A stretch of DNA of 64,000 nucleotides from Qipengyuania citrea (lineage in GTDB: Bacteria > Pseudomonadota > Alphaproteobacteria > Sphingomonadales > Sphingomonadaceae). The notes beneath the pieces are model-generated. The model saw nothing but the letters and a program-made list of their open reading frames with translations. It was not told where the DNA came from and made no database searches. Location: NCBI RefSeq assembly GCF_024171405.1, contig NZ_JALJZT010000002.1, forward strand, positions 2,666,001-2,730,000, given 5' to 3'. A program made the translations under genes and the position numbers. Of the stretch, positions 2,627 to 16,248 are shown one piece after another; the stretch's first letter is position 1, and every line of letters begins with the position of its first letter.

Positions 2627-3988
2627 CTAGGCAGGGGCGGCCCCGGCGGCGTTCCACGCTCCCATCGAGCCGAGGTAAACGTCGAGTTTCGCAAACCCGC
2701 GGCTGGCGAGCCAGCCGGCGGCGACGGTCGCGCGCATCCCGCTGGCGCACATCAGCGTGTAGTGCGTGGCCGAGTCGAGATCGCGGTAGCGTTCGTTCAA
2801 CTCGCCGACATAGATGTGCTGCGAACCGTCGATCGCGCTGGCAGAGCGTTCGTCGGCGTCGCGCACATCGAGCAGCGTCCAGCCTGTGGGCCGGTTTTCG
2901 AGGCGGCTCGCGACCTCGCCGGTTGCGATCATCGGGATCATCGCCATGTCGCGCCCCTGCGCTGCGGCGGGAACGACACCGACATAGCCACCCACGACAT
3001 TGTCCAGCGCGATGCGCACGAGATGGGTCATGGCGGCGGCGAGCTGATCTTCGTCGGAACCCACCAGCGCGAGGCTTTCGCCTTCGCGGATGAACCATCC
3101 GGCAAAGGCCGAGATCATCCCGACGGGCAGGTTCATCGCCCCGGGCAGATGCCCCGCCGCATAGGCCAGCGGCTCGCGGATATCGACGAGATGATCGACC
3201 TCGAGTTCGCCCAGTTCCGCCAGTGACAGGCGGCGGGGGCGCATGACCCGCGGGGCCGGGTCGCCGCCGCTGAGGTTGAGCCGCTCCATCAGCCGGAAAT
3301 AGGGTGGCTGGTAGTGGTTCTCACCCACCTTGAAATCGATGAAGGCTTCGCGGTCGGCGAATTGCAGGCGCGGGTTGTTGGCGCGTTCGTGACCGACGGT
3401 CGAGAACTCGCGTTCCGCCATGCCCGACCCGCAGACCGAACCTGCACCATGCGCGGGATAGAGAATGACCTGGTCGCCCAGCGCCAGCACCTTCTGCAGC
3501 GAATCGTACAGCAACCCGGCGACTTCACGCTTGCGGTCGGGATAGAAATCGGTGCGGCCGACATCGCCGACGAACAGCGCATCGCCGGTGAACACACCGA
3601 CCGGACCATCGGGATAGGCGGTGTCATGCAGGACGAAAGCAAGATGGTCGTCGGTGTGGCCCGGCGTTTCGAGCACGCGAATGGTCAGTTGCCCGATTTC
3701 GAAGGCATCGCCCTCGCGCGCGGTTTCCGCATAGACGACATCGGCTGCAGCGTTGGGGCCGTGCAAGACCCGCGCGCCGGTCAGCGCCGCGAGGATCGGC
3801 GCGCCCGATACCAGGTCCTCGTTCCTATGCGTTTCGAAGATATGGGTGATTTCGAGCCCTGCGGCGCGCGCCATGTCGACATAGCATTCGCAGTCGCGGC
3901 GAGGATCGATAACCGCCGCCTGGCCGCCGGACCCAACGAGGTAGGACAGGTGCGACAGACCGGGGGTCTTGATTTTTTCGAGCAGCAT
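2627..3988 (-). CDS. MBL-fold hydrolase with tandem rhodanese domains
   Basis: 453 aa. Residues 1-250 form a metallo-beta-lactamase fold of the ETHE1/persulfide dioxygenase type, followed by two rhodanese domains. The usual HxHxDH metal motif is replaced by HRNEDL (residues 54-59); GHTDDH near 111 and YPAHGAG are kept. The first rhodanese domain lacks an active-site Cys; the second has C414 in MCASGMRA. Family members act on glutathione persulfide or low-molecular-weight persulfides and pass sulfane sulfur to thiols. It is the last gene of the minus-strand sulfide train and starts at an ATG behind AGGAG. The altered metal site makes the exact reaction uncertain. Confidence 0.85.
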   Translation of the reverse strand: MLLEKIKTPGLSHLSYLVGSGGQAAVIDPRRDCECYVDMARAAGLEITHIFETHRNEDLVSGAPILAALTGARVLHGPNAAADVVYAETAREGDAFEIGQLTIRVLETPGHTDDHLAFVLHDTAYPDGPVGVFTGDALFVGDVGRTDFYPDRKREVAGLLYDSLQKVLALGDQVILYPAHGAGSVCGSGMAEREFSTVGHERANNPRLQFADREAFIDFKVGENHYQPPYFRLMERLNLSGGDPAPRVMRPRRLSLAELGELEVDHLVDIREPLAYAAGHLPGAMNLPVGMISAFAGWFIREGESLALVGSDEDQLAAAMTHLVRIALDNVVGGYVGVVPAAAQGRDMAMIPMIATGEVASRLENRPTGWTLLDVRDADERSASAIDGSQHIYVGELNERYRDLDSATHYTLMCASGMRATVAAGWLASRGFAKLDVYLGSMGAWNAAGAAPA

Positions 3989-4009
3989 TTCGTTCTCCTA
4001 GCACGGGCA

Positions 4010-4037
4010 GGCGGGACCGGCGCAAGCCGGTCCCGCC
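4010..4037 (-). other. Strong intercistronic stem-loop
   Basis: A perfect 12-bp stem (GGCGGGACCGGC with its complement) is closed by a four-base loop GCAA (GNRA-like as written on the plus strand, TTGC on the transcript strand). It lies between the peroxiredoxin stop and the start of the MBL-rhodanese gene, with its base about 10 nt from the AGGAG of the latter. No T-run follows, so it looks like an mRNA processing, stability or attenuation element rather than a classical terminator. Confidence 0.6.
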
Positions 4038-4064
4038 CATGTCATGGATCGGGTTGGCCCAGGC

Positions 4065-4694
4065 TCAGTCGATTGCGACCGTGCGCAGGTAGGGCCGTAG
4101 CGTAGTGAAGCCCTGCGGGAAGCGTGCCTTGGCGTCCTCGTCGGAGACCGAGGGCGGGATGATCGCGACCTTGCCGTGGCGCCAGTCCGCCGGAGTCGCG
4201 ACGCCGTGCTTGTCGCTGAACTGCAGCGCATCGATAGCGCGCAGGATCTCGTCGAAATTGCGCCCGACGCTCATCGGATAGGTCATCGTCAGACGGACCT
4301 TCTTGTCGGGATCGATGAGGAAGACCGAGCGGACCGCGGCCGTCTCGCTCTCGTCGGGATGGATCATGTCGTAGAGCTTTGCGATCTTGAGATCGGCGTC
4401 GGCGACGATCGGGAAAACCAGATTGGTGTTCTGCGTGTCGTTGACATCCTCGATCCAGCGCGCGTGTTCGGCGGCGGTGTCGGTGGACAGGCCAAGCGGC
4501 TTCACATTGCGCTTGTCGAACTCGTCGGAGAGCTGCGCGGTGCGGCCCATTTCGGTCGTGCAGACGGGCGTGAAGTCGGCCGGGTGGCTGAAGAAGAAAA
4601 CCCAGCTGTCGCCCGCCCATTCATGCAGGCTGATTTCGCCATTCTGGGTGTCGACGGTGAAGTCGGGGGCGGTGTCGCCGATATGGAGACTCAT
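4065..4694 (-). CDS. 1-Cys peroxiredoxin (Prx6-type)
   Basis: 209 aa thioredoxin-fold peroxidase of the AhpC/TSA family. The active site SHPADFTPVCTTE holds the peroxidatic C45, the only cysteine of the protein, so it is a 1-Cys enzyme that needs an external thiol for recycling. The C-terminal extension typical of the Prx6 group is present. The ATG at 4694 is preferred because AAGGA lies 7 nt upstream; a TTG two codons earlier is less likely. It sits between the bd-oxidase genes and the MBL-rhodanese gene, where peroxide or persulfide reduction would suit sulfide oxidation. Confidence 0.9.
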   Translation of the reverse strand: MSLHIGDTAPDFTVDTQNGEISLHEWAGDSWVFFFSHPADFTPVCTTEMGRTAQLSDEFDKRNVKPLGLSTDTAAEHARWIEDVNDTQNTNLVFPIVADADLKIAKLYDMIHPDESETAAVRSVFLIDPDKKVRLTMTYPMSVGRNFDEILRAIDALQFSDKHGVATPADWRHGKVAIIPPSVSDEDAKARFPQGFTTLRPYLRTVAID

Positions 4695-4890
4695 GTGCAA
4701 ATCCTTCGCTTCGAGTGGATGCGCACCTTCTACGCGCGGTTCGGAACACCGTCCAATTCGGATTTACGATTGCATTAATCGAGTAATCAAACGCGTCTGG
4801 ATTTGACCTGCTTACGCCTTAAGGGTGCCCGCCGTAGCCGTTCATTTATGTGAAAATGATAATTGAAAGCCTTCTAGGTGACAATCCGAG

Positions 4891-5013
4891 TCAGGCCTTG
4901 AGCCAGAACCGGATGATATAAGCGACGGTGCCCAGCACGGCGATGCTCGCCGCCCAGATCACTGCCATCCAGCCAAGCCGCCGCCACAGCGGTCGTTCGT
5001 CCGGACCGGGCAT
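4891..5013 (-). CDS. DUF2474 small membrane protein, bd-oxidase accessory (CydX-like)
   Basis: 40 aa with one transmembrane helix (about residues 13-36) after a basic N-terminal WRRLGW stretch. Its ATG overlaps the stop codon of cydB (TGATG on the minus strand), so translation is probably coupled. Small single-helix proteins encoded just after cydAB (CydX, CydY, DUF2474) are subunits that stabilise the haem-containing core of cytochrome bd oxidases. The identification rests on size, topology and position. Confidence 0.75.
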   Translation of the reverse strand: MPGPDERPLWRRLGWMAVIWAASIAVLGTVAYIIRFWLKA

Positions 5014-6020
5014 CAATGATAGCCCTCGTCGCCCACCTTGCCGCGGAAGACCCAATAGGCCCAGGCAGTATAGGCGATGATCAGCGGCATGGTGATCGCC
5101 ACCCCGACCAGCATGAAGATCTGGCTTCGTTCGGGTGCCGCGGCATCCCAGATGGTGACGCCGGGCGGCACGACATAGGGCCACATGGTGAACCCGAGCC
5201 CCGCCATGCCGAAGAAGAACAGCGCGAGGCTGAGCCAGAACGGCTTGCTGTGGCGCTCGACCGACAGCGAGCGCAGCAGGGCGATCGCGATGATGCCGGT
5301 CAGGATCGGCACGGGCGCGGCGAGGTATATCTCGGGCGCCGTCAGCCAGCGATCGGCATATTCGGGGTTCAGGAACACGTTATAGAGGCTGACCCCGCCC
5401 ATCAGCACCAGCGTGGCCCAGGCGGCGCGCTTGGCAAGCTGGCGGGCGTGATGCTGGCTGTCGCCGTCGAGCTTCCACACCAGCCAGGTCGCACCAAGCA
5501 GCGCATAGCCCGCCACCGTGCCGAGCCCGGTCAGCAGCGTATAGGGCGTCAGCCAGTCGAACCAGCTGCCCGCATAGGCGCGGTCGACCACTTCGATGCC
5601 CTGCAGCAGCGCGCCCAGCGTCATGCCCTGCGCCATCGCCGCCACGAGGCTGCCGCCGGTAAAGGCCGCGTCCCACAGCCGCCGATGGCTGGGGTCGCGC
5701 CAGCGATACTCGAACGCCACGCCGCGAAAGACCAGCCCCAGCAACATGGCGATGATCAGCGGATAGGTCGCCGGCAGGATCACCGCATAGGCCAGCGGGA
5801 AGGCAGCAAAAAGCCCGCCGCCCCCCAACACCAGCCAGGTCTCGTTACCGTCCCAGACCGGGGCGATGGAGTTCATCGCCCGGTCGCGTTCGGGCCCGAC
5901 TTCGAAGGTCGGGAAGAGGATCCCGATGCCCAGATCGAAGCCGTCCATCACGACATAGGCGAAGACCGCAAAGGCGATGATGAACGCCCAGATGACGGTA
6001 AGGTCGAAATTAACGGCCAT
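5013..6020 (-). CDS. cydB: Cytochrome bd-type quinol oxidase subunit II
   Basis: 335 aa, multi-spanning membrane protein of the CydB/CioB family. The N-terminus carries the family signature region VVMDGFDLGIG and the NETWLVLGGGG segment. It forms the heterodimer with CydA that oxidises quinol and reduces oxygen to water without proton pumping. The ATG at 6020 was chosen because family homology begins there; the longer open frame upstream reads through the end of cydA. The gene overlaps cydA by 11 nt and the DUF2474 gene by 3 nt, forming a compact cydA-cydB-DUF2474 unit. Confidence 0.95.
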   Translation of the reverse strand: MAVNFDLTVIWAFIIAFAVFAYVVMDGFDLGIGILFPTFEVGPERDRAMNSIAPVWDGNETWLVLGGGGLFAAFPLAYAVILPATYPLIIAMLLGLVFRGVAFEYRWRDPSHRRLWDAAFTGGSLVAAMAQGMTLGALLQGIEVVDRAYAGSWFDWLTPYTLLTGLGTVAGYALLGATWLVWKLDGDSQHHARQLAKRAAWATLVLMGGVSLYNVFLNPEYADRWLTAPEIYLAAPVPILTGIIAIALLRSLSVERHSKPFWLSLALFFFGMAGLGFTMWPYVVPPGVTIWDAAAPERSQIFMLVGVAITMPLIIAYTAWAYWVFRGKVGDEGYH

Positions 6021-7464
6021 CGGTCGCCTCCTCGTGATCGCGCGGCAGGGTGCTGGGGTCGCCCGGGTTCTGCGACGGCCCCGGGGTAATGCCGGCGGTA
6101 CGGATGGGCCCCGTATCGCCGCGCTTGACGCCCTTCTCGCCGACATGCGGGGGACTGTGCATCAGGTGGAGAATGTACCACACCCCCGCGCCGAAAACGG
6201 CGAAATAGACCACCACGAAGGCGAGTAGCGAAGCGCCGACTGCGGGCGCGTCGAGCGGGCTGGCGGCATCCGCCGTGCGCAGCAGATTGTAGATCACATA
6301 GGGCTGGCGGCCGACTTCGGTGGTGATCCACCCGGCGATGACCGCAACGAAACCACTCGGTGCCATGACCAGCGCGGCGCGGTGCAGCAGCGGCCAGTCG
6401 TAGAGCTTCCTGCGGACACGCGCGAGCAGGCTCCACAGTCCGAGCCCGAGCATGGCGAAGCCGATGGCGACCATGATGCGGAACGACCAGAACACGATGC
6501 CGACCGGCGGTTCCTCGTCATCGGGGATCGTATCCAGCCCTGCCATCGGCGCATAGAGATCGTGCTTGAGGATCAGCGAGGATGCCTTGGGAATCTCCAC
6601 GGCGTATTTGACCCGCTTTTCCTCGCTGTCGGGAATGCCGAACAGGATCAGCGGCGCGCCATCGGGATGGCTCTGGTAATGCCCCTCCATCGCCATGACC
6701 TTTTGCGGCTGGTGCTCGAGCGTGTTGAGCCCGTGCAGATCGCCGGCGAAAATCTGGATCGGCGCGACGATCGCCGCCATCCACATCGCCATCGAGAACA
6801 TCTTGCGCGCATGGAGATTGGTGCGGTCGCGCAGCAGGTGCCATGCGCCGACCCCGCCAACCACGAAGGCGGTAGTGAGATAGGCGGCGATCACCGTGTG
6901 CACGAGGCGATAGGGGAAGCTGGGGTTGAAGATGATCTCGATCCAGCTGTCGCCCGGCAGATATTGCCCGTTTGCGCCCAGTTCGTAGCCGACCGGCGTC
7001 TGCATCCAGCTGTTGACCGACAGGATCCAGAAGGCCGACACAAAGGTCCCGACAGCGACCATCAGCGTGGCGGCGAAGTGGAGCTTCTTGCCGACCTTGT
7101 TCATCCCGAACAGCATGACGCCGAGGAACCCCGCCTCGAGGAAAAAGGCGGTGAGGACTTCATAGGCCATCAGCGGGCCGATCACCGGGCCGGCGATGTC
7201 GGAGAAGACCGACCAGTTGGTGCCGAACTGGTAACTCATGACGATGCCCGACACGACGCCCATGGCGAAGGCGATGGCGAAGATCTTGAGCCAGTATTTG
7301 AACAGGTCGAGATAGATCTGCTTGCCGGTCTTGAGCCACAGGCCCTCGAGCACTGCGAGGAAGCTCGCCAGGCCGATCGAAAAGGCCGGGAAGATGAAGT
7401 GGAAGCTCACCGTAAAGGCGAACTGGATCCGGGCGAGTAGAAGTGCGTCGACGCCTTCGAACAT
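6010..7464 (-). CDS. cydA: Cytochrome bd-type (CIO) quinol oxidase subunit I
   Basis: 484 aa. It contains the haem-ligand His near residue 22 (FTVSFHFIFPAF), the conserved GHYQ motif in the quinol loop, and a short Q-loop, which places it in the cyanide-insensitive oxidase (CioA) branch. Oxidases of this type tolerate sulfide and cyanide, unlike haem-copper oxidases. Its position directly downstream of sqr, sulP and the small HTH gene in the sulfide train suggests it receives the electrons that SQR puts into the quinone pool. No separate strong promoter was identified in the 57-bp gap upstream. Confidence 0.95.
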   Translation of the reverse strand: MFEGVDALLLARIQFAFTVSFHFIFPAFSIGLASFLAVLEGLWLKTGKQIYLDLFKYWLKIFAIAFAMGVVSGIVMSYQFGTNWSVFSDIAGPVIGPLMAYEVLTAFFLEAGFLGVMLFGMNKVGKKLHFAATLMVAVGTFVSAFWILSVNSWMQTPVGYELGANGQYLPGDSWIEIIFNPSFPYRLVHTVIAAYLTTAFVVGGVGAWHLLRDRTNLHARKMFSMAMWMAAIVAPIQIFAGDLHGLNTLEHQPQKVMAMEGHYQSHPDGAPLILFGIPDSEEKRVKYAVEIPKASSLILKHDLYAPMAGLDTIPDDEEPPVGIVFWSFRIMVAIGFAMLGLGLWSLLARVRRKLYDWPLLHRAALVMAPSGFVAVIAGWITTEVGRQPYVIYNLLRTADAASPLDAPAVGASLLAFVVVYFAVFGAGVWYILHLMHSPPHVGEKGVKRGDTGPIRTAGITPGPSQNPGDPSTLPRDHEEATDGR

Positions 7465-7521
7465 GGTGTCCCCTATCTCACAGCTCGTTTAGCGGAGCGA
7501 TGGCCGCTTGGCCCGCCCGAA

Positions 7522-7683
7522 TTACGCAATGGGTGTTGCATCGGATTGGCGCGCCGTGCGCCAGCGGTAGAACGTCTTTTCCGAGATGCCGACCTCGCGG
7601 CAGCTCTCGCACACGCCCTTGCCGGCGGCGATCAGCGTCTCGATCCGGCGGCAGCGCGCGTCCTTGTCGGGGATTACCGCCAT
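7522..7683 (-). CDS. 53-aa helix-turn-helix protein resembling an IS3 OrfA N-terminus
   Basis: 53 aa. The body IETLIAAGKGVCESCREVG followed by ISEKTFYRWR looks like the first helix-turn-helix of IS3-family OrfA transposases (CR..GIS..TFYRWR pattern), but the rest of an OrfA/OrfB and any terminal repeats are missing. The ATG overlaps the stop of the SulP gene (TGATG), so it is translated as part of the operon. It has two cysteines, C25 and C28, spaced CxxC. It could be a domesticated DNA-binding protein acting inside the sulfide operon, or a decaying relic. Confidence 0.65.
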   Translation of the reverse strand: MAVIPDKDARCRRIETLIAAGKGVCESCREVGISEKTFYRWRTARQSDATPIA

Positions 7684-9506
7684 CAGATCATCCCCCGCGC
7701 CATGTCGGGTGTGGGCGTGTCGGGCGGGCCGCCATTGGCCGCGAGTTCGCGAAAGGCGCGGTTCTGCGACAGGAACACCTTGCCGTTCAGATCGGCGACG
7801 AAATGGGTGCGGTTCAGCCGATCCATGACCGGACCTTTTACTTCGGACAAATGCAGCCCGATCCCGGCATCGGCCATACGGTGATTGATCGCCTCGAGGC
7901 TTTCGAGGCCCGAAGCATCGATTTCGTTCACTGCGCTGCACATCAGGATTACGTGGCGCACTGCGGGCCGGTCGGCGACTTCCTCGAGGACATATTCCTC
8001 GAGCCAGCGCGCGTTGAGATAGGTCAGGCTCTCGTCGATGCGGATCGACAGGACATGCGGCACGGTGAACACGTCGTGGCGGTCGATATTGCGGAAATGC
8101 TCGGTCTCGGGAACGCGGCCGACGATCGCGGCATGCGGGCGGCTGGCGCGCCACAGATAGAGCAGCAGTCCCACCGCGACCCCGGCGATCACGCCCAGTT
8201 CGACGCCCGCCAGCAGGGTGATGACGATGGTCACCATATGCGCGGCGAAATCGGCTTTCGAATAGCGCCACAGCTGGCCCGGGGTCTTCAGGTCGACCAG
8301 GCTGAGCACGGCGACGATGATTGTCGCGGCCAGCGTCGCGATCGGCAGGCTGAACAGCAGGGGTGTCAGGAACAACCCTGCCAGCGCGATACCCACCGCG
8401 GTGTAGGCACCCGCGGCGGGCGTTTCCGCACCGGCATCGAAATTGACCACCGAGCGGGCGAAACCGCCGGTTACCGGATAGCCGCCCGAAAAAGCGCTGG
8501 CGATGTTCGACGCGCCGAGGCCGATCAATTCCTGGTTCGGCGCGATCCGCTGGCGCCGCTTGGCGGCCAGCGTCTGCGCGACCGAGACGCTTTCGACGAA
8601 ACCGATGACCGAGATCAGCAGCGCGGGCACCCATAGCTGCGCAATCAGGTCGAGATCGGTCGAGGGAAGGGCGAAGGGAGGCAGACCCTGCGGGATCGCG
8701 CCGACCAGGTTCACGCCGCGATCGCCCAGATCGAATGCAATCGCTGCAAGGATGGTGACCGCCACCGCGGCTACCGGTCCGGCCTTGGCCACGATATCGG
8801 CGGCATGGAGTTTCAGGCCCATCCGCATCAGCAAGGGCTTCAGACCCTTGCGGACCCAGAACAGAAACAGCGTCGCGGGCACGCCGATCGCGAGCGTCCA
8901 CGGATTGATCTGGTCGGAAGCCGATGCCAGTCCGCCAAGCATGGCGGGCCAGGTATCGCCGCCCGCGCTGACGCCGAGGATATGCTTGAGCTGGCTGGTC
9001 GCGATGAGGATACCGCTGGCAGTGATGAACCCGCTGATCACCGGGTGCGACAACAGGTTGGCGAGGAAGCCCATGCGCAGCAGGCCGAGCACGACCAGCA
9101 TCACACCCGACAAGGCCGCCAGCGTAATCGCCGCTTCGAGATAAAGCGCGGTTCCCTGCGCGGCGACCGCGCCCGCCGCGCTTGCGGTCATCAGCGACAC
9201 CACCGCAACCGGGCCGACCGCCAGAGTGCGGCTGGTGCCGAAAATCGCATAGGCGACCAGCGGGAGGATCGAGGCGAAGAGCCCGACCACCGGCGGCAGG
9301 CCCGCCAGCAGCGCATAGGCGAGACTTTGCGGGATCAGCATGATGGTGACGACGATGGCCGCCACCATGTCCTTGGTCAGGATCGCGCCATTATACGACC
9401 GGCCCCATTCGAGGATGGGGAAATACTGCGCCAGCGCTCCTGCGCGCTGGCCCTGTCCGGGGGCGCTGGCCTGCGCCACGCCTGGGTCCGATTCCGGCCT
9501 GTCCAT
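7683..9506 (-). CDS. SulP-family anion permease with STAS domain
   Basis: 607 aa. The N-terminal two thirds are about 10-12 membrane segments with SulP signatures (LIPQSLAYALLAGLPP, GPVAVVSLM), followed by a cytoplasmic STAS domain (about 460-580). SulP proteins move sulfate, other oxyanions, bicarbonate or organic acids. In this operon, export or exchange of sulfite, sulfate or thiosulfate made from sulfide is a reasonable guess. The ATG at 9506 overlaps the stop of sqr; an upstream start would only add a poorly conserved tail reading into sqr. Confidence 0.88.
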   Translation of the reverse strand: MDRPESDPGVAQASAPGQGQRAGALAQYFPILEWGRSYNGAILTKDMVAAIVVTIMLIPQSLAYALLAGLPPVVGLFASILPLVAYAIFGTSRTLAVGPVAVVSLMTASAAGAVAAQGTALYLEAAITLAALSGVMLVVLGLLRMGFLANLLSHPVISGFITASGILIATSQLKHILGVSAGGDTWPAMLGGLASASDQINPWTLAIGVPATLFLFWVRKGLKPLLMRMGLKLHAADIVAKAGPVAAVAVTILAAIAFDLGDRGVNLVGAIPQGLPPFALPSTDLDLIAQLWVPALLISVIGFVESVSVAQTLAAKRRQRIAPNQELIGLGASNIASAFSGGYPVTGGFARSVVNFDAGAETPAAGAYTAVGIALAGLFLTPLLFSLPIATLAATIIVAVLSLVDLKTPGQLWRYSKADFAAHMVTIVITLLAGVELGVIAGVAVGLLLYLWRASRPHAAIVGRVPETEHFRNIDRHDVFTVPHVLSIRIDESLTYLNARWLEEYVLEEVADRPAVRHVILMCSAVNEIDASGLESLEAINHRMADAGIGLHLSEVKGPVMDRLNRTHFVADLNGKVFLSQNRAFRELAANGGPPDTPTPDMARGMI

Positions 9507-10738
9507 CACGCGGCGGTCTTGACCTGCGGTTTGACCATCCATTCATGGCCCTTGAGCATGCCGTTCCAGTAGATCCACGGCAGCGCTTCGGATTTCAGCA
9601 GCCAGCTCAGCCGCCGCGGACGCGTGCCGTCGATCAGCCAGGTGGGGAAGCTGGGCTGGAGCTCGCCGTCATAACCGAACTCGGCAAGCACGATCTTCCC
9701 GCGCTCGACCGTCAGCGGACACGAGCCATAGCCATCGTAATCGGCGACCGGCTGCTTGCCGTCGAGCACCGCCAGCGCGTTGACCGCGACGATCGGTGCC
9801 TGCTTGCGCACGGCCGCGGCGGTCTTGGCATTGGGGCTCGACCCGGCATCGCCAAGACCGAAGACATTGGGGTAGCGCACATGGCGCAGCGTGAACTTGT
9901 CGACATCGACAAAGCCGCTTTCGGCATGCGCCAGCGGGCTGTCGGCAACGAATTGCGGCGCCACTTGCGGGGGCACGACGTGGAGCATGTCGAACGCGAC
10001 CACTTCCTCGCCCGCTTCGGTCTTGAACGTGGCGGTCTTTGCCGGTCCGTCGACCGCGACGAGTGTCTGGTTGAGCTTGAGATCGATGCCGTATTTCTCG
10101 ACATATTCCATCAGCGCGGGGAGGTATTCCTTGACCCCGAAAAGCACGCCGCCCGCATTGCGGAACTCGACATCGATATCGTTGAGCACATGGCTATCGG
10201 CCCATGCATCGCAGGACAGGTACATCGCCTTTTGCGGCGCGCCGGCACATTTGATCGGCATCGGCGGCTGGCTGAAGATCGCCCGCCCGGACTTGAGGCC
10301 CTGCACCAGCTCCCAGGTGTAGGGGGCGAGATCGTAGCGATAGTTCGAGGTCACGCCGTTCTTGCCCAGCGTATCTTCCAACCCGGCAATCTTCTCCCAC
10401 GCCAGGCGGATACCGGGGGCGACGATCAAGATCCGGTAGGTAATCGTGCTGCCGTCGGCGAGCGTTACCTGATTATGCTCGGGCTGGAAGCTGGCCGCGG
10501 CCTCGCGGATCCAGTGGGCTCGCCGGGGCATGACGCTGGCCATCGGGCGGCGGGTTACCGGCGCATCGAACACGCCCGCGCCGACCATCGTCCAGCCGGG
10601 CTGATAGTAATGGTCCTCGGCCGGCTCGACGATCGCGATATCCAGACCGGGACGCCGCCGCAGCATCGAGGACGCGGTAGCGATGCCCGCCGATCCGCCG
10701 CCGATAATGACCACCTCGTGGGTAAGTGCCTGTGCCAT
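9506..10738 (-). CDS. sqr: Sulfide:quinone oxidoreductase, type II
   Basis: 410 aa FAD-dependent membrane-associated enzyme. It shows the Rossmann motif GGGSAGIA (13-20), YYQPGWTMVGAG (44-55), FAD-binding GLGDAGSSPNAKT, and two cysteines, C164 and C340, matching the redox-active pair of mitochondrial-type SQR; the YDGYGSCPL segment is characteristic of type II enzymes. It oxidises H2S to sulfane sulfur, transfers it to an acceptor such as sulfite or glutathione, and reduces quinone. The ATG at 10738 sits behind GGAGAGG. It is the central gene of the train, next to persulfide and oxidase genes. Confidence 0.93.
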   Translation of the reverse strand: MAQALTHEVVIIGGGSAGIATASSMLRRRPGLDIAIVEPAEDHYYQPGWTMVGAGVFDAPVTRRPMASVMPRRAHWIREAAASFQPEHNQVTLADGSTITYRILIVAPGIRLAWEKIAGLEDTLGKNGVTSNYRYDLAPYTWELVQGLKSGRAIFSQPPMPIKCAGAPQKAMYLSCDAWADSHVLNDIDVEFRNAGGVLFGVKEYLPALMEYVEKYGIDLKLNQTLVAVDGPAKTATFKTEAGEEVVAFDMLHVVPPQVAPQFVADSPLAHAESGFVDVDKFTLRHVRYPNVFGLGDAGSSPNAKTAAAVRKQAPIVAVNALAVLDGKQPVADYDGYGSCPLTVERGKIVLAEFGYDGELQPSFPTWLIDGTRPRRLSWLLKSEALPWIYWNGMLKGHEWMVKPQVKTAA

Positions 10739-10766
10739 GCCGATCCTCTCCGAGAAGTGATTTGGG

Positions 10767-11180
10767 TTATGCGCCAAGCCGCGGGCGCAGGGGGGACAGG
10801 TCGTAGCCTGCCTGCCGCGCCCGCTCGATGCGCGCATCGGCGCTCAGCTGCTCGACATTGGCAAGCGTATCGAGCGTGATCGAGCGTGTGCCGGTACGGC
10901 AGTAGGCCAGCACCTTGCCATCCGCTTCCCGGCGGACCGTGGCAAAGGCCGCGATCGCCTCCGCGGGAAAGGCGCCTCCCGAAACCGGGATATGATGGAA
11001 GGCAATGCCTGCGCTGTGCGCCGCATCGCGCATCTCGGCCACGGTGGGCTGGCCATCTTCCTCCCCGTCGGGGCGATTGCAGATGACGGTGCGATAGCCC
11101 GCATCGGCAGCGTCTCGCATGTCGGCAGCCTGCACTTGCGGGACGACTGCGAACCGCTCGGTGACTTCGATAATTCTCAT
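10767..11180 (-). CDS. TIGR01244/DUF442 sulfur-transferase or phosphatase-like protein
   Basis: 137 aa. The C-terminal half holds a CX5R cysteine-phosphatase-like loop (YCRTGTRS, Cys near residue 94), as in the DUF442 domain often fused to persulfide dioxygenases in Blh-type proteins. Here it is a stand-alone gene whose partner MBL protein lies four genes upstream. The ATG overlaps the stop of the upstream YeeE-like gene. Family members are thought to handle sulfane sulfur, but direct biochemistry is limited, so the reaction is inferred. Confidence 0.8.
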   Translation of the reverse strand: MRIIEVTERFAVVPQVQAADMRDAADAGYRTVICNRPDGEEDGQPTVAEMRDAAHSAGIAFHHIPVSGGAFPAEAIAAFATVRREADGKVLAYCRTGTRSITLDTLANVEQLSADARIERARQAGYDLSPLRPRLGA

Positions 11181-11599
11181 GCGCCCGCTCCTTCGAACAA
11201 CCGCACGAGAGCCATACCCGCAAGCATGGCCGCGACGAAGATCGCCGCCGCCGCGGGTTCGATCACCAGCGCAGCGATGCCCGGTCCGGGGCACAGTCCG
11301 GCCACGCCCCAGCCGATGCCGAACAGCGCCGCCCCGCCGATCAGGCGCGGGGTGAGGTCGGATCGGGTCGGCAGGTGGAAATGCTCGTCGAGCAGCGGCG
11401 CTGCCATGCGCGGCACGAAACGCCAGGCGATCGCCATGACGATGACCGCGCCGCCCATGACGAAGGCGAGCGTCGGGTCCCATGCGCCGAAGATGTCGAG
11501 AAATCCGCGCACACGCGCTGGATTGGTCATCCCGCCCAGCGCCAGTCCGGCGCCAAACAGCGTGCCTGAGATCAGGCTTGGGATAGTGATCCGGCTCAT
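11177..11599 (-). CDS. YeeE/YedE-type transporter, C-terminal half (DUF6691)
   Basis: 140 aa, about four membrane helices. It has [17 protein letters not shown] and [10 protein letters not shown], the pattern of the second half of YeeE/YedE proteins; the Cys in GLCPGPG corresponds to a conserved thiosulfate-path cysteine. It overlaps both neighbours by 4 nt. Together with the preceding gene it makes a two-gene version of a thiosulfate or sulfane-sulfur importer of the TsuA/YeeE kind. The split arrangement (COG2391/DUF6691) is common beside persulfide dioxygenase genes in proteobacteria. Confidence 0.85.
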
Positions 11600-12045
11600 T
11601 GCAATACCTCCAGTCCCATCGCGTTCATCACCGCGACCGTGGCAATGCCCGCCGCCATGAAAGTCGCGGTGGCGACGATCGAGCGGCCCGACAGGCGGCT
11701 GACCCCGCAAACCCCGTGTCCGCTGGTGCAGCCGCTGCCGAGGCGGGTTCCGATCCCGACCAGCAAGCCTGCGACCACCAATACCAGCGGACTGGCGAAG
11801 CGGGCCTCGATCCCGCCGCTGAGGAGCGACACGATCAGCGCGCCGAGCGGCAGGCCGATCACGAACATCCACGCGGCGCTGCGGGGAATCCCGCTACCGC
11901 CCAGGCCGACCGCCTTCGCGGCTAGCCCGGAAACGCCGGCGATACGGCCAAGCCCGAGCAGCATCAGCGCCGCGGCAAGGCCGATGAGCGCGCCGCCCGC
12001 CAGTCCGGCGAGCGGCGCGGCATCGGGAAATCCGGGGAGCGTCAT
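11596..12045 (-). CDS. YeeE/YedE-type transporter, N-terminal half
   Basis: 149 aa, about four membrane helices. The motif [12 protein letters not shown] carries two cysteines that in YeeE relay thiosulfate through hydrogen bonds to thiols. The stop overlaps the start of the C-terminal-half gene and its start overlaps the stop of the upstream MBL gene, so the three are translationally linked. Likely role: moving thiosulfate or persulfide-type sulfur across the inner membrane for the sulfide pathway. Confidence 0.87.
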
Positions 12046-12971
12046 ACCGCGTTCACCGGGATCTTGATGTAGCTCACGCCATTATCCTCGGGTTCGGGCA
12101 GGCGCCCGCCGCGAATGTTCACCTGCACCGACGGCATGATCAGCTTGGGCATGTCCAAGCCCTTGTCGCGGGTGGTGCGCATGGTGACGAAATCGTCCTC
12201 GGTGACGCCGTCCTTGACGTGGACGTTCTCCTCGCGCTGCTGCTTCACCGTGGTTTCCCAGGCGTATTCGTCGCGGCCCGGGGCCTTGTAGTCGTGGCAC
12301 AGGAACAGCCGCGTGTCGTCGGGCAGGGAGAGGAGGCGGCGGATCGAGCGGAACAGCTGGTGCGCGTCCCCGCCGGGGAAATCCGCCCGCGCAGTTCCGA
12401 AGTCGGGCATGAAGATCGTATCGCCGACAAACGCCGCATCGCCGATGATGAAGGCCATGTCCGCGGGCGTGTGCCCGGGAACGTGAAGCGCGATACCTTC
12501 CAGCTCGCCGAGGCTGAAGGTTTCGCCATCGTCGAACAGCTTGTCGAACTGCGACCCGTCACGCTCGAAATCGGTCCCGGCATTGAACAGCTTGCCGAAC
12601 ACTTCCTGCACGCGAATGATCTCGCGTCCGATGGCGAGCTTGCCGCCGAGCTTGGTCTGCAGATAGGGCGCCGCCGAAATGTGGTCGGCATGCGCATGGG
12701 TCTCGATCAGCCAGGTCACTTTCAGATTATTGGAAGTGACGTATTCGACAATCCGATCGGCGGAGCCATTCGAGGTCCGGCCCGACGCGGCTTCGAAATC
12801 GAGGACCGAATCGATGATTGCGGCCTCGCTGGTCTTGGGGTCGTGCACTACATAGGACACCGTATTGGTTGCTTCGTCGAAGAACCCGGCGATCGACGGG
12901 CGCAGCCCCTTGTTGTCCTGGGCGCGGGCAATTTGCTGGGAGGCCGATTGTAGCGATTGATCGTTATTCAT
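12042..12971 (-). CDS. Persulfide-dioxygenase-like MBL-fold hydrolase (Blh type)
   Basis: 309 aa. The metal motif is intact here: [11 protein letters not shown] gives HxHxDH, with PGHTPADM and LCHDY further on. This is the ETHE1/Blh group that oxidises glutathione persulfide with Fe(II) and O2 to sulfite and glutathione. It is the first gene after the promoter at 13.0 kb. The ATG at 12971 is chosen because GGAG lies 8 nt upstream; the GTG three codons earlier lies inside that ribosome-binding site. It contrasts with the distal MBL-rhodanese gene, whose metal motif is altered. Confidence 0.9.
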
Positions 12972-12990: not shown

Positions 12991-13011
12991 TACATAAACT
13001 ATTTATATGTA
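12991..13011. promoter_or_regulatory. AT-rich palindrome, candidate ArsR operator
   Basis: TACATA-N9-TATGTA with an AT-rich centre stands in the 74-bp gap between the divergent blh-like and peroxiredoxin genes. It overlaps the minus-strand -10 element. ArsR/SmtB repressors (BigR, SqrR and others) bind AT-rich 12-2-12-like palindromes at such positions, and an ArsR gene is two genes away. Confidence 0.65.
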
Positions 13012-13045: not shown

Positions 13046-13717
13046 ATGACCCACGATGCCTCGAAAGACAGCGGCGAGCATATCGCCCCCGGTGCCGGCC
13101 TCCGGATCGGCGATATCGCACCCGATTTTTCCGCCCGGAGTACCACAGGCGACATGCGGCTGTCGGATTGTCGCGGGCGCTGGCTGGTCCTGTTCTCGCA
13201 CCCGGCCGACTTCACCCCGGTCTGCACGACCGAGTTCGTGGCGCTGGCCAAGGCTGCCGACCAGTTCGCGCAGCGCGAATGCGACCTCATGGCGCTGTCG
13301 GTCGACAGCCTGTTCTCGCATTTCGCCTGGCTGCGGATGATCCGCGACCGCTTCGATGTCGAAGTACGCTTCCCGATCATCGAGGATCCCACGCTCGTCA
13401 TCGGGCGCGCCTATGGCATGGTCGCGCCGGGCGATAATGACAGCGCAACGGTGCGCACGACCTTCTTCATCGATCCGCACGGCGTGATCCGCGCGATGAC
13501 ATGTTATCCCGCCAATGTCGGACGCTCGACATCCGAAATGCTGCGTACGCTCGATGCGCTGCAGGCGGTCGACAAGGATCCGGTGCTCGCCCCGGCCAAT
13601 TGGGAGCCGGGACAGAAGCTGCTGCGCCAGCCGAGCGCCGAGCTCGACGATGTGTTCGCGGCGAAGGATCACACCGACTGGTTTCTGCAGGAAGTGGGCC
13701 GGGGCAAGCGCGCATGA
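13046..13717 (+). CDS. Peroxiredoxin, AhpC/TSA family (second copy)
   Basis: 223 aa peroxiredoxin related to the copy at 4065-4694: same SHPADFTPVCTTE active site. It has extra cysteines, including one in MTCYPANVG where the other copy has TYP, so its recycling may differ. The ATG at 13046 is preferred to the one at 13007, because the latter lies inside the operator/promoter palindrome; the ribosome-binding site at 13046 is weak, so the start is not certain. It is divergent from the sulfide operon and overlaps the arsR start by 4 nt. Confidence 0.88.
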   Translation: MTHDASKDSGEHIAPGAGLRIGDIAPDFSARSTTGDMRLSDCRGRWLVLFSHPADFTPVCTTEFVALAKAADQFAQRECDLMALSVDSLFSHFAWLRMIRDRFDVEVRFPIIEDPTLVIGRAYGMVAPGDNDSATVRTTFFIDPHGVIRAMTCYPANVGRSTSEMLRTLDALQAVDKDPVLAPANWEPGQKLLRQPSAELDDVFAAKDHTDWFLQEVGRGKRA

Positions 13718-14052
13718 CCGGGGACGAACTGGTCGATGCACTCAAGGCGGTCGCGCATCCGGTGCGCCTGCGCATCTTGCAGACACTCGCCGGGACCGAA
13801 CGCAATGTCGGCGAGATCGACGAGGCGGCGGACATCGGCCAGCCCACGCTGTCGCAGCAGCTCGCCGTCCTGCGCAATGCCGGGCTGGTGACGACACGCA
13901 AGGACGCCAAGCTGGTCTTCTACCGCATCGACGAACAGCGGGTCGCGGCGGTTTCGGCTGCGCTCGGCGGTCTCGCCGGGGTGGACCTGGCCCCCACGCG
14001 CCCGACCCGCAGCCCGGCCCCGGGTGTCGCCAATTTCGCGCGCCTCACCTGA
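13714..14052 (+). CDS. ArsR/SmtB-family transcriptional regulator
   Basis: 112 aa winged helix protein. ALKAVAHPVRLRILQTL is the family's N-terminal helix and QPTLSQQLAVLRNAGLV the recognition helix region. Position suggests it represses the divergent sulfide operon through the palindrome at 12991-13011. Unlike the persulfide sensors BigR and SqrR, it has no cysteine at all, and no obvious metal-binding His/Asp cluster is seen. Translationally coupled to the peroxiredoxin (ATGA overlap). How it senses sulfide, if it does, is open. Confidence 0.88.
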   Translation: MTGDELVDALKAVAHPVRLRILQTLAGTERNVGEIDEAADIGQPTLSQQLAVLRNAGLVTTRKDAKLVFYRIDEQRVAAVSAALGGLAGVDLAPTRPTRSPAPGVANFARLT

Positions 14053-14282: not shown

Positions 14283-15053
14283 GTGTCTCGACATCGATTT
14301 TTTGCTGCCGTCCTTGCTTTGACGGCGTTTCCCGTCGGCGCGCAAGCGCAGGGCGGCGGGACAAGCGCGGCCGCGCCCGGCTTGCCGACCGACCTCAGCA
14401 TCTGGGGCATGTTCGCGCAGGCCGACTGGGTGGTGAAGCTGGTGATGATCGGGCTGGTGCTCGCCTCGCTGGTCACCTGGACCGTGCTGGTCGCCAAGCA
14501 TCTCGAACTCGCGCGGCAACGCGAAAGCGCGGAGCAGTTCCGCGACAAGCTCGCCGCCACGCAATCGCTGGCGCAGCTCGACCCCGCCTTTGCCGATCAT
14601 CCGATCGTCATCCAGGCGCGCGAAGAGATCGCGCAATCGGCGGGCTCGCTCGACGATCGCGAAGGCTTGAAGGAACGGCTCGTCTCGCGGCTCGACCGGC
14701 ACGAGGCGAAGGTCGCGCGCAAGATGACGCAGGGCGTCACCATTCTCGGCACGATCGGGGCGACCGCGCCCTTCGTCGGCCTGTTCGGCACCGTCTGGGG
14801 CATCATGAACAGCTTCATCGGTATTGCCGAACAGCAGACCACCAATCTCGCAGTGGTCGCGCCGGGTATTGCCGAAGCGCTGCTGGCCACCGCGCTCGGG
14901 CTCGTCGCCGCCATTCCGGCGGTGGTGATCTACAACCATTTCGCACGCGCCATCGCGGCGCACCGCGCCGTTGTCGCCGATAGTGCGGCCGCGCTGCTAC
15001 GCGTGGTCTCGCGCGATCTCAGCCGGGGCACGCTGCCGGAGGGCAAGGTCTGA
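14283..15053 (+). CDS. exbB: ExbB/TolQ-type proton channel subunit
   Basis: 256 aa. A signal-peptide-like N-terminus (residues 1-23, ending AQAQ) precedes an inner-membrane protein with three helices (about 48-70, 155-180, 195-220) and the MotA/TolQ/ExbB signature GTIGATAPFVGLFGTVWGIM. With ExbD and TonB it couples the proton gradient to outer-membrane receptors. It starts with GTG behind a weak ACGAGGG. It is followed after 1 nt by exbD, in one operon with a siderophore receptor, and is probably repressed by iron through the upstream Fur-like box. Confidence 0.93.
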   Translation: MSRHRFFAAVLALTAFPVGAQAQGGGTSAAAPGLPTDLSIWGMFAQADWVVKLVMIGLVLASLVTWTVLVAKHLELARQRESAEQFRDKLAATQSLAQLDPAFADHPIVIQAREEIAQSAGSLDDREGLKERLVSRLDRHEAKVARKMTQGVTILGTIGATAPFVGLFGTVWGIMNSFIGIAEQQTTNLAVVAPGIAEALLATALGLVAAIPAVVIYNHFARAIAAHRAVVADSAAALLRVVSRDLSRGTLPEGKV

Positions 15054-15054
15054 G

Positions 15055-15483
15055 ATGGCGCTCAGGCTCGCCTCGGACAGCGAAGACCTGGCGGTCGCGC
15101 ATGAGATCAATGTCACGCCGTTCATCGACGTGATGCTGGTGCTGCTGATCATCTTCATGGTCGCCGCGCCGCTGGCGACGGTCGATGTGAAGGTCGATCT
15201 GCCGGTATCCAACGCGCAATCCGCACCCAAGCCCGAAGCGCCGGTCTATCTGTCGCTGCAGGCCGACGGGTCGATCCTCGTCAATGAAGATGAGGTGCGG
15301 CTGGCGGCGCTGGGTGCAGCGATCACCGAAGCGACTGCGGGCGACCGCGAAGAGCGGGTTTTCCTGCGCGCCGACAAGGCGATCACCTATGACGAAATCA
15401 TGCAGGCGATGAACGCGCTGCGCGCCGCGGGTTATGTCCATGTGGCGCTGGTCGGTGCCGAGACCGGGGCCGCGGTGCCATGA
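15055..15483 (+). CDS. exbD: ExbD/TolR-type biopolymer transport protein
   Basis: 142 aa. Short cytoplasmic N-terminus, one membrane helix (about 24-43, FIDVMLVLLIIFMVAAPLA) with the essential Asp at its start (FID), and a periplasmic domain. It pairs with ExbB to energise TonB. The ATG lies 1 nt after the exbB stop, and the stop overlaps the start of tonB by 4 nt, showing a tightly coupled exbB-exbD-tonB unit. Confidence 0.94.
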   Translation: MALRLASDSEDLAVAHEINVTPFIDVMLVLLIIFMVAAPLATVDVKVDLPVSNAQSAPKPEAPVYLSLQADGSILVNEDEVRLAALGAAITEATAGDREERVFLRADKAITYDEIMQAMNALRAAGYVHVALVGAETGAAVP

Positions 15484-16229
15484 TGCTGGCAGGGGCAGGA
15501 CGCACCAACTGGATGCTGGGGGGCGGCATTGCCTTCGCCGGCCATGCAGCCGTGGTCGCGGGTCTGCTCCTGATCGGCACCGCGCCGCCCAAGCCCATCG
15601 TCGAAGACCCGGTCGTCCTGCTGGAACTGCCCCCGCAGGCCGCCCCGGCGCCCGCTGCGTTGAACGAGCAGCCGGTCGATGCGCTCCAGCCCGACTATGT
15701 CCCGCCGCAGACCTTCCAGCCGCGGATCGAGGCACCGCAAGTGAGGGCGCCGCTGCCGCGCGAGTTCGTTGCGACGCCGCCGCCACCACCGCCCTTGCCC
15801 TCGCGCCGCAGTGTCGCGCCCGCGCCGCAGCCGACCACTTCCGCCCGGCCCGCGCGCAATGCGCTGGCGGTCGCTCCCGAAGGCAGCGGCACCGGAACCG
15901 CTGCCACCGCGGGCGACGATCCGAAGGCCAAGCGCGAAGAGGCCGATTACTATGCGCTGCTGAGCGCGCATCTCAATCGCAAGAAACGCTATCCGAGCGA
16001 GGCCAAGAAGGCGCGCCAGCAGGGCGTGGTGACGGTGCGCTTCACCGTGCTTGCCGATGGCCGGATCAGCGCCAGCTCGATCCGCACGTCCAGCGGGCAC
16101 GACCTGCTCGACCAGGCCACGCTGGACCTGATGCAGCGCGTTGCGCCGCTGCCCAAATTCCCGCGATCGATGACCAAAGACAGTGTCACGATCTCGCTTC
16201 CTATCGACTATTCCCTACGCACAAGATGA
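15480..16229 (+). CDS. tonB: TonB energy-transducing protein
   Basis: 249 aa. N-terminal membrane anchor (about 14-34), a Pro-rich periplasmic spacer (about 38-125, including a run of proline before LPSRRS), and a C-terminal TonB domain (about 160-249) with KRYPSEAKKARQQGVVTVRF. It transfers the energised state to the TonB box of outer-membrane receptors. Encoded directly before a siderophore-type receptor, so it is probably a dedicated iron TonB. Confidence 0.92.
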   Translation: MMLAGAGRTNWMLGGGIAFAGHAAVVAGLLLIGTAPPKPIVEDPVVLLELPPQAAPAPAALNEQPVDALQPDYVPPQTFQPRIEAPQVRAPLPREFVATPPPPPPLPSRRSVAPAPQPTTSARPARNALAVAPEGSGTGTAATAGDDPKAKREEADYYALLSAHLNRKKRYPSEAKKARQQGVVTVRFTVLADGRISASSIRTSSGHDLLDQATLDLMQRVAPLPKFPRSMTKDSVTISLPIDYSLRTR

Positions 16230-16248
16230 TGATTAGAAAGGTTTTTCC

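What the first reader, a model, noticed from the sequence alone, without database searches (positions are those of the whole stretch)
2627..12971. Eleven-gene sulfide/persulfide train that includes its own bd-type quinol oxidase
From one promoter, minus-strand genes encode persulfide dioxygenase-like, YeeE-type transporter halves, DUF442, type II SQR, SulP, an HTH protein, CydA/CydB/DUF2474, a 1-Cys peroxiredoxin and MBL-rhodanese. Most neighbours overlap by 3-11 nt. Sulfide poisons haem-copper oxidases but not bd-type ones, so pairing SQR with its own terminal oxidase would make a self-contained sulfide-respiring detox module.
Basis: partly seen in the sequence, partly recalled or inferred. 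Interest (0 to 1): 0.65.

Follow-up and report, generated by a model that had tools for sequence, protein, structure and literature searches.

The report
Mobile sulfide-oxidation operon with own oxidase
A run of bacterial genes packages the enzymes that burn off toxic sulfide together with a respiratory oxidase of a kind that sulfide does not poison, and the same package recurs in many related bacteria and on plasmids, under an unusual repressor paired with a peroxiredoxin.

Summary
The genes are real. There are twelve, not eleven: ten are tightly packed (12971 to 4891, minus strand), then a peroxiredoxin and MBL-rhodanese pair lies behind a 196-nt gap with a promoter-like site. One operator palindrome, the only such site found in the genome, sits on the -10 region of the leading gene. 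SQR is type II; the bd oxidase is the only one found in the genome, beside two haem-copper oxidases. In 147 Sphingomonadales genomes, 24 of the 42 with this SQR carry cydA within 7 kb downstream. Outside the family the pairing recurs in 8 of 38 SQR genomes in other layouts (0.25 expected). Modules ride on predicted conjugative Sphingobium plasmids. This strongly supports functional coupling, SQR to quinone to cytochrome bd; sulfide induction and insensitivity are untested here. New observation: BigR-like repressors next to such a peroxiredoxin carry a C-terminal tail motif (58 of 59; 0 of 40 without one) and often lack the known sensing cysteines; the window's repressor has none. Sensing through the peroxiredoxin is the boldest reading.

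The parts
12042..12971 (-). ETHE1/Blh-type persulfide dioxygenase (PDO), first gene of the operon
   Evidence: Pfam Lactamase_B; NCBIfam Blh model 398 bits over its C-terminal part, below the 625 cut-off; the sulfurtransferase domain is a separate gene
11596..12045 (-). YeeE/YedE-type sulfur transporter half
   Evidence: Pfam Sulf_transp
11177..11599 (-). second transporter half, DUF6691
   Evidence: Pfam DUF6691 9e-40
10767..11180 (-). DUF442 sulfur transferase
   Evidence: TIGR01244 above its cut-off
9506..10738 (-). type II sulfide:quinone oxidoreductase
   Evidence: best PDB relatives are mitochondrial SQOR chains, 320 bits; Cys164 and Cys340 align with KCAGAPQK and SCPL of SQOR
7683..9506 (-). 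SulP anion transporter with STAS domain
   Evidence: Pfam; in 9 relatives a TauE/SafE-like gene stands in or near its place
7522..7683 (-). 53-aa transposase-like HTH protein, optional
   Evidence: Pfam HTH_Tnp_1 just over its cut-off; found by tblastn in 6 of the 80 related loci
6010..7464 (-). CydA, cytochrome bd subunit I with short Q-loop
   Evidence: Pfam 558 bits; about 60 residues of the E. coli Q-loop region absent in the alignment; only CydA found in the genome
5013..6020 (-). CydB
   Evidence: Pfam
4891..5013 (-). DUF2474, small membrane protein after CydB
   Evidence: Pfam
4695..4890 (-). 196-nt gap with promoter-like TTGTCA-17-TATCAT (4884-4856) and an upstream element partly conserved in some relatives; probable separate promoter
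4065..4694 (-). 1-Cys peroxiredoxin (Prx_op), probable separate transcription unit
   Evidence: Pfam AhpC-TSA and 1-cysPrx_C; sits at another place in some relatives
4010..4037 (-). perfect 12-bp GC hairpin between Prx_op and MBL-rhodanese
2627..3988 (-). MBL-rhodanese protein (CstB-like architecture, likeness recalled)
   Evidence: Pfam Lactamase_B and Rhodanese
12991..13011 (.). operator palindrome TACATA-N9-TATGTA over the -10 region
   Evidence: the extended pattern hits one place in the genome
13046..13717 (+). divergent 1-Cys peroxiredoxin (Prx_div)
   Evidence: Pfam; Cys60 kept in 36 of 36 pairs, window included
13714..14052 (+). Cys-less BigR/SqrR-like ArsR repressor with C-terminal tail GVANFARL, overlapping Prx_div by 4 nt
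   Evidence: best PDB relative BigR 3pqj; no cysteine; tail

Best explanation
This is a repressor-controlled sulfide-detoxification operon that brings its own electron outlet. Type II SQR oxidises sulfide and passes two electrons to ubiquinone; cytochrome bd takes them to O2 while the haem-copper oxidases are poisoned. The persulfide made by SQR is handled by the DUF442 sulfur transferase and the persulfide dioxygenase, giving sulfite, which SulP (TauE/SafE in relatives) exports; the YeeE-type pair moves sulfur compounds. A divergent ArsR repressor, made with a 1-Cys peroxiredoxin, sits on the palindrome over the -10 region and lets go when reactive sulfur rises. Shown here: gene content, linkage, recurrence, presence on plasmids, a conserved palindrome. 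Inferred from known family biochemistry: every reaction, repressor binding, induction by sulfide and insensitivity of this oxidase.
For: Compact ten-gene run. Type II SQR. bd-type oxidase, the only one found in the genome, with two haem-copper COX1 genes. Linkage: 38 of 80 nearest CydA loci have SQR or PDO within 9 kb upstream on the same strand, 34 of the 38 with SQR; 24 of 42 SQR genomes among 147 Sphingomonadales. Other orders in other families: 8 of 38 SQR genomes outside the family within 12 kb, expected 0.25 for a 15-kb window, P 3e-10 by random placement (layouts). L127 has CydA-CydB-DUF2474-YeeE-DUF6691-PDO-DUF442-SQR-SulP on one strand. Predicted conjugative Sphingobium plasmids carry ArsR-Prx|PDO...TauE-CydAB; 8 plasmids in the listed rows of two searches have Prx_div and CydA 2.0-8.2 kb apart, divergent. 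A minimal form, ArsR-Prx|PDO-TauE-CydAB, lacks SQR; in L077 ArsR-Prx faces cydAB directly. TTGAC in 35 of 35 intergenic regions, window included; palindrome in 28 of 34 by pattern; one site in the genome. Literature: isolated E. coli bd oxidases insensitive to sulfide up to 58 uM, bo3 IC50 1.1 uM (PMC4815019, abstract); a SQR-to-CydAB link through the quinone pool was predicted for A. baumannii (PMC7315123, passages).
Against: No transcript or enzyme data. 42 of 80 nearest CydA loci lack linked SQR or PDO by this rule (three, L022, L033 and L050, are on contigs cut close upstream, and L022 still has SulP-HTH before CydA), and 10 of 42 SQR genomes in the order had no CydA at the threshold, so neither needs the other. 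The CydA tree needs 11 changes of the linked state (8 forced by supported branches), so the link forms or breaks often. Of the 8 linked genomes outside the family only 3 (G210, G309, G398) carry a CydA close to this one (68-72 percent identity); in the other 5 it is a distant bd oxidase (33-48 percent), and in G355 the SQR is distant too. G126, in the same genus, has SQR-TauE beside the same neighbour gene, with cydAB elsewhere. No CydC above its curated cut-off was found in the genome, leaving oxidase assembly open. The 57-nt gap before cydA could hold an internal promoter, though the scan found none there.
Confidence: 0.8

Rival explanations
1. cydAB is simply a microaerobic oxidase that drifted next to a sulfide operon; the proximity has no functional meaning.
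For: Many relatives have cydAB without linked SQR or PDO (42 of 80). In Sphingopyxis granuli cydA induction followed oxygen deprivation, and the SQR operons are described apart from it in the passages I saw (PMC6472365, passages).
Against: Linkage far above random placement in the order and, in other gene orders, in other families; presence of the whole module on plasmids; cydAB directly opposite ArsR-Prx in L077.
Confidence: 0.12
2. The unit is mainly a persulfide or oxidative-stress defence (two peroxiredoxins, two MBL proteins), with cytochrome bd serving as a peroxide-tolerant oxidase rather than as an electron outlet for SQR.
For: Two 1-Cys peroxiredoxins beside the unit. The minimal plasmid form keeps PDO, TauE and CydAB but no SQR, and 4 of 38 linked loci show no SQR hit. 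A peroxiredoxin can reduce S8 (PMC9426444, abstract).
Against: SQR is present in 34 of 38 linked loci.
Confidence: 0.2
3. The window's Cys-less ArsR is a degenerate or constitutive repressor, or senses a metal, and the real sulfide control lies elsewhere.
For: It has no cysteine, whereas BigR senses through two (PMC5823870, passages).
Against: Palindrome, gene overlap and tail motif are kept in most or all Cys-less relatives, so the protein is under selection; the palindrome pattern occurs once in the genome.
Confidence: 0.25

Closest known systems
bigR operon (Xylella, Agrobacterium) and A. baumannii BigR/FisR sulfide operons
   Same: ArsR-type repressor with PDO, DUF442 sulfur transferase, transporters; A. 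baumannii also has a YeeE/YedE pair in its BigR operon and induces cydAB with sulfide (PMC7315123 and PMC5823870, passages)
   Different: there cydAB is at another locus (A1S_1433-1434); here it is in the operon. BigR has the Cys42/Cys108 dithiol; this ArsR has none and adds a tail and a coupled peroxiredoxin
E. coli YgaV
   Same: SqrR/BigR homologue whose deletion raises cydAB reads (PMC9774250, passages)
   Different: it controls some 140-150 genes; the authors say the mechanism of sulfide-dependent cydAB induction had remained unknown. That E. coli cydAB is not linked to sulfide genes is recalled
Rhodobacter capsulatus SqrR regulon
   Same: a peroxiredoxin gene and sqr are both raised more than 10-fold by sulfide and by sqrR disruption (PMC9995734, passages)
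   Different: the passages seen mention no peroxiredoxin-repressor gene pair, and the SqrR chain in the PDB (identified by recall) ends 3 residues after its last aligned cysteine
B. licheniformis 11-gene sulfide cluster
   Same: co-transcribed sulfide and sulfane-sulfur cluster with SQR and PDO (PMC9918477, abstract and passages)
   Different: CstR-like repressor and NreBC; the term cyd is not found in its main text

Membership tests
Type II sulfide:quinone oxidoreductase | closest to eukaryotic-type SQOR with its two active-site cysteines | tested here: met
   320 bits to mitochondrial SQOR, C164 and C340 aligned; chains named sulfide-quinone reductase score 41-43 bits. NCBIfam's best model is a type III seleno form, far below its cut-off. 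The type of the other chains and the catalytic role of the Cys are recalled.
Cytochrome bd, short Q-loop (CIO-like) | CydA and CydB with haem-ligand positions, Q-loop shorter than in E. coli | tested here: met
   H, H and M positions aligned with E. coli CydA (ligand identities and the CIO name recalled)
Cytochrome bd, short Q-loop (CIO-like) | insensitivity to sulfide or cyanide | not testable with these tools
   seen in print for the E. coli enzymes
BigR/SqrR dithiol persulfide sensor | ArsR winged-helix fold related to BigR | tested here: met
   3pqj is the best PDB hit, 2.4e-19; HTH_5; by sequence only, no structure was predicted
BigR/SqrR dithiol persulfide sensor | two redox cysteines (BigR Cys42 and Cys108) | tested here: not met
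   no cysteine in the window protein; in the Cys-bearing relative L072 the Cys are off register by +1 from BigR and by 8 from the last Cys of the SqrR chain (my reading of the alignment)
BigR/SqrR dithiol persulfide sensor | NCBIfam BigR equivalog cut-off | tested here: not met
   82.5 bits against 155
Blh bifunctional sulfur transferase/dioxygenase | DUF442 and ETHE1 domains in one protein | tested here: not met
   two genes here
Single polycistronic operon of all listed genes | one promoter for all | tested here: inconclusive
   first ten genes compact, last two behind a 196-nt gap with a promoter-like site; no RNA data

The most novel reading that the evidence does not exclude
The repressor of this module has handed its sensing to a partner. 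A translationally coupled 1-Cys peroxiredoxin is persulfidated or oxidised and docks on the C-terminal tail motif (A-x-F-A-[RKQ]) of a BigR-like ArsR, so that reactive sulfur is read by the peroxiredoxin and DNA release is executed by an ArsR that no longer needs cysteines. This would be a peroxiredoxin-ArsR two-protein switch commanding a mobile sulfide-oxidation and cytochrome bd cassette.
Probability: 0.35. Interest if true: 0.8.

Novelty: new variant of a known kind. Interest (0 to 1): 0.62.

Why it matters
Sulfide-insensitive respiration by cytochrome bd and sulfide oxidation by SQR were linked before by induction data and models. Here they are joined genetically in one repressor-flanked package that also occurs on plasmids, which makes the link directly testable by deletion of one DNA segment. 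It also bears on how sulfide induces cydAB, described as unknown for E. coli before the YgaV work (PMC9774250, passages). The tail and peroxiredoxin pairing points to a route for sensing reactive sulfur that would not use cysteines in the repressor.

Tried and rejected
Single clade of sulfide-linked CydA: rejected; the label changes 11 times on the CydA tree.

Prx C-terminal Cys as the partner of an ArsR alpha-5 Cys: 14 of 14 against 0 of 22 in the first set, and L088 agrees, but plasmid locus L115 has the ArsR Cys without the Prx Cys and the split follows lineages, so I do not rely on it.

Independence of the tail and peroxiredoxin association: only 3 contrasts on supported branches. They agree on average (2.9 same, 0 opposite), but a sign test cannot reach significance. 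The tail pattern was first seen in the 36 pairs and its loose form was widened after seeing more data. Outside that first set 24 of 25 paired proteins match the strict or loose pattern, 20 of 25 the strict one, and 0 of 40 unpaired proteins either. In the first test set the strict pattern gave 17 of 21 against 0 of 19. The length of the C-terminal extension separates the groups largely without any pattern: 40 or more residues in the 50 paired rows that could be measured (4 could not), 10-26 in 17 of 19 unpaired rows, the other two 35 and 42. Fisher values ignore relatedness.

HTH protein as a required regulator: rejected, found in only 6 of the 80 related loci.

Paper searches (one search failed) showed, in the listings and in the passages I opened, no report of cydAB inside an SQR-PDO operon and none of a peroxiredoxin-ArsR pair of this kind. 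That library is open access only, and most listed papers were seen only as listings.
Full report
WHAT IS THERE. On the minus strand, from 12971 down to 4891, ten genes follow each other closely: persulfide dioxygenase, YeeE-type half, DUF6691 half, DUF442 sulfur transferase, SQR, SulP, a 53-aa HTH protein, CydA, CydB and DUF2474. Their nine junctions are overlaps of 4, 4, 4, 1, 1, 11 and 1 nt and gaps of 28 and 57 nt. Then comes a 196-nt gap, a 1-Cys peroxiredoxin (Prx_op, 4065-4694), a 76-nt gap with a perfect 12-bp GC hairpin, and an MBL-rhodanese gene (2627-3988).

The last two genes look like a separate unit. The gap before Prx_op holds the only sigma-70-like hit of the scan (1 found, 2.1 expected in shuffles, so weak alone). 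In relatives Prx_op sits either after DUF2474 (L004, L005, L040; 201 nt before it) or between SulP and CydA (L015, L016, L029, L038; 188-198 nt; L013 and L028 about 770-790 nt), and an upstream element is partly conserved in some of them.

THE OTHER HALF. On the plus strand a second 1-Cys peroxiredoxin (13046-13717) overlaps by 4 nt an ArsR gene (13714-14052). Between the two units, read toward the operon, lie TTGACA, 16 nt and TATAAA (seen directly; the scan demands T at the last place and skips it). The palindrome TACATA-N9-TATGTA covers the -10 region. BigR is reported to recognise the -10 region of its operon (PMC5823870, passages). TTGAC is present in 35 of 35 intergenic regions including the window; a pattern for the palindrome matches 28 of 34. 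The extended pattern with up to 3 mismatches hits one place in the 3.2-Mb genome (both strands of the same site), with 0 in the reversed control.

WHAT THE PROTEINS ARE. SQR is type II: mitochondrial SQOR chains score 320 bits and chains named sulfide-quinone reductase 41-43; Cys164 and Cys340 align with the SQOR motifs. CydA is a bd-type subunit I lacking about 60 residues of the E. coli Q-loop region. It is the only CydA found in the genome, beside two haem-copper COX1 genes; by my reading of their ORFs one is an aa3-like enzyme and the other a fused COX1/3 with a subunit II that bears a haem c motif. No CydC scores over its curated cut-off in the genome (best 278.7 against 329).

IS THE LINKAGE REAL? 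Of the 80 nearest CydA loci in public genomes, 38 have SQR or PDO within 9 kb upstream on the same strand, 34 of them with SQR. 42 do not; three of these are on contigs cut close upstream (L022, L033, L050), and L010, L022, L051, L060, L077 and L078 keep some parts of the module nearby. In 147 Sphingomonadales genomes, 42 have this SQR, 81 a CydA, 32 both; in 24 they lie on one strand 875 to 6,980 nt apart. In 289 Alphaproteobacteria, 42 have SQR and 30 both; outside the window's family 38 have SQR, 27 both, and 8 have them within 12 kb, against 0.25 expected by random placement in a 15-kb window, P 3e-10. The layouts there differ. L127 is CydA-CydB-DUF2474-YeeE-DUF6691-PDO-DUF442-SQR-SulP on one strand. 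L125 and L126 have cydAB divergent from PDO-DUF442-SQR-SulP. These three have a CydA of 68-72 percent identity. In the other five the CydA is distant (33-48 percent): L132 has a distant SQR beside CydB-CydA, and in L128 to L131 the distance is 7-12 kb, so these are weaker cases. Different orders in different families argue for repeated assembly.

It is also on plasmids. Predicted conjugative plasmids of Sphingobium sp. WTD-1, Sphingobium sp. EP60837 and S. herbicidovorans carry ArsR-Prx divergent from PDO...TauE-CydA-CydB; in pEP2 the module lies between Tn3-family and IS30-family genes. Eight plasmids in the listed rows of both searches have Prx_div and CydA 2.0-8.2 kb apart and divergent (40 of 62 and 25 of 550 records were listed). 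A Paracoccus plasmid has SulP, SQR, PDO, DUF6691 and YeeE with Crp/Fnr and Rrf2 regulators divergent from peroxiredoxin-CydAB. A Sinorhizobium meliloti pSymB copy of cydAB has no such neighbours within 7 kb, and plasmid copies of Prx and ArsR with SQR or PDO genes but without cydAB nearby were found too: L114 to L118 and L122. The CydA tree (80 rows, one locus dropped) needs 11 changes of the linked state, 8 forced by supported branches, against 27 in shuffles: clustered, but gained or lost often. In G126, of the same genus, the neighbour of the window's operon (the GMC-domain ORF, 87 percent) is kept, but the module there ends SQR-TauE and cydAB is elsewhere. In nine relatives, among the loci whose gaps I read, a TauE/SafE-like gene is found where SulP would be or between the module and CydA (the name comes from annotated copies), which fits an export role for SulP.

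HOW IT MOST LIKELY WORKS. SQR oxidises sulfide and reduces ubiquinone; cytochrome bd reoxidises the quinol with O2 where haem-copper oxidases are inhibited; PDO and DUF442 process the persulfide; SulP or TauE exports sulfite. Gene content and linkage are shown; the reactions are inferred from the families. Isolated E. [quoted passage not shown] The SQR to quinone to CydAB link was already proposed for A. baumannii, where sulfide induces a cydAB that lies elsewhere (PMC7315123, passages). E. coli YgaV, a BigR homologue, affects cydAB reads (PMC9774250, passages). So the concept is known; one operon holding both parts, its recurrence and its presence on plasmids are what this adds.

THE REPRESSOR. 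The window's ArsR has no cysteine, although BigR is its best PDB relative. Among 36 divergent Prx-ArsR pairs including the window, 22 lack both conserved ArsR cysteines, and 20 of these have no cysteine at all. The 14 others (Novosphingobium, Sphingobium, Sphingorhabdus, Sphingomonas and some MAGs) have one or two; in L072, the one I aligned with PDB chains, they are off register from BigR by +1 and from the last Cys of the SqrR chain by 8. All 36 keep the peroxiredoxin Cys60. 35 of 36 keep a C-terminal tail G-x-A-x-F-A-[RKQ]-[LIMV] (one or two residues at the second x) after a linker of variable length; L066 is cut short. With the start codon taken nearest the Prx stop, 32 of 36 pairs overlap by 4 nt (the window's by its coordinates).

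To test whether tail and peroxiredoxin go together I collected BigR-like ArsRs by their core domain only, from 289 class and 397 phylum genomes (only the 30 best loci of each were readable, out of many more matches), plus the Prx-based and plasmid loci. After removing duplicates 99 proteins remain. 58 of 59 with a peroxiredoxin within 2.2 kb on the same strand have the tail by the strict or the loose pattern (L099 is the exception), and 0 of 40 without one do. Outside the 34 paired rows in which the motif was first seen the counts are 24 of 25 (20 of 25 by the strict pattern alone) against 0 of 40. 38 of 40 unpaired proteins match a simple dithiol pattern against 9 of 59 paired; 25 paired and 0 unpaired proteins are free of cysteine over the matched stretch. 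The unpaired label means none in the readable stretch, about 1.5 kb each side for most. Paired proteins are not one clade (5 changes, 3 on supported branches), and the supported contrasts agree in direction (2.9 of 3, none opposite), but three contrasts cannot reach significance. My reading, at 0.35, is that the peroxiredoxin has become the sensor and docks on the tail.

VERDICT. A conserved sulfide-oxidation operon with its own bd oxidase, also found on plasmids: a new variant of the BigR/SQR/PDO kind, under a repressor that fails the dithiol test of that family and shows a tail-peroxiredoxin association not met in the papers I saw.

Noticed in passing
window 60787-62103, minus strand: An ABC exporter resembling CydC (229.7 bits, below the family cut-off of 329). 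No CydC in the genome passes the cut-off (best 278.7), although cydAB is present.
   Followed up: no
L122 533-12493 (Methylobacterium radiotolerans pNYY1_4): An SQR-Prx-PDO-ArsR-YeeE-TauE cluster lies next to genes for a haem-copper oxidase and c-type cytochromes, a possible different oxidase pairing.
   Followed up: no
L169 4012-9399 (Sphingobium herbicidovorans pMSHV): Minimal form of the module on a predicted conjugative plasmid: ArsR-Prx divergent from PDO-TauE-CydA-CydB, without SQR.
   Followed up: partly
L170 1-9486 (Paracoccus p1PARARS4): Sulfide genes with Crp/Fnr and Rrf2 regulators divergent from peroxiredoxin-CydAB: same parts, other control.
   Followed up: no
window 7522-7683, minus strand: A 53-aa transposase-type HTH protein found in 6 of 80 related loci inside the operon (60-84 percent identity); perhaps a domesticated IS remnant.
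   Followed up: partly
window 14283-18618, plus strand: ExbB and a TonB-dependent receptor, with ExbD/TonB-like ORFs between them by position only, follow the ArsR gene.
   Followed up: no
L133 3613-12509 (genome G126): A same-genus relative has the module ending in TauE beside the same GMC-domain gene, with cydAB elsewhere in the genome: a natural comparison for gain or loss of cydAB at this site.
   Followed up: partly
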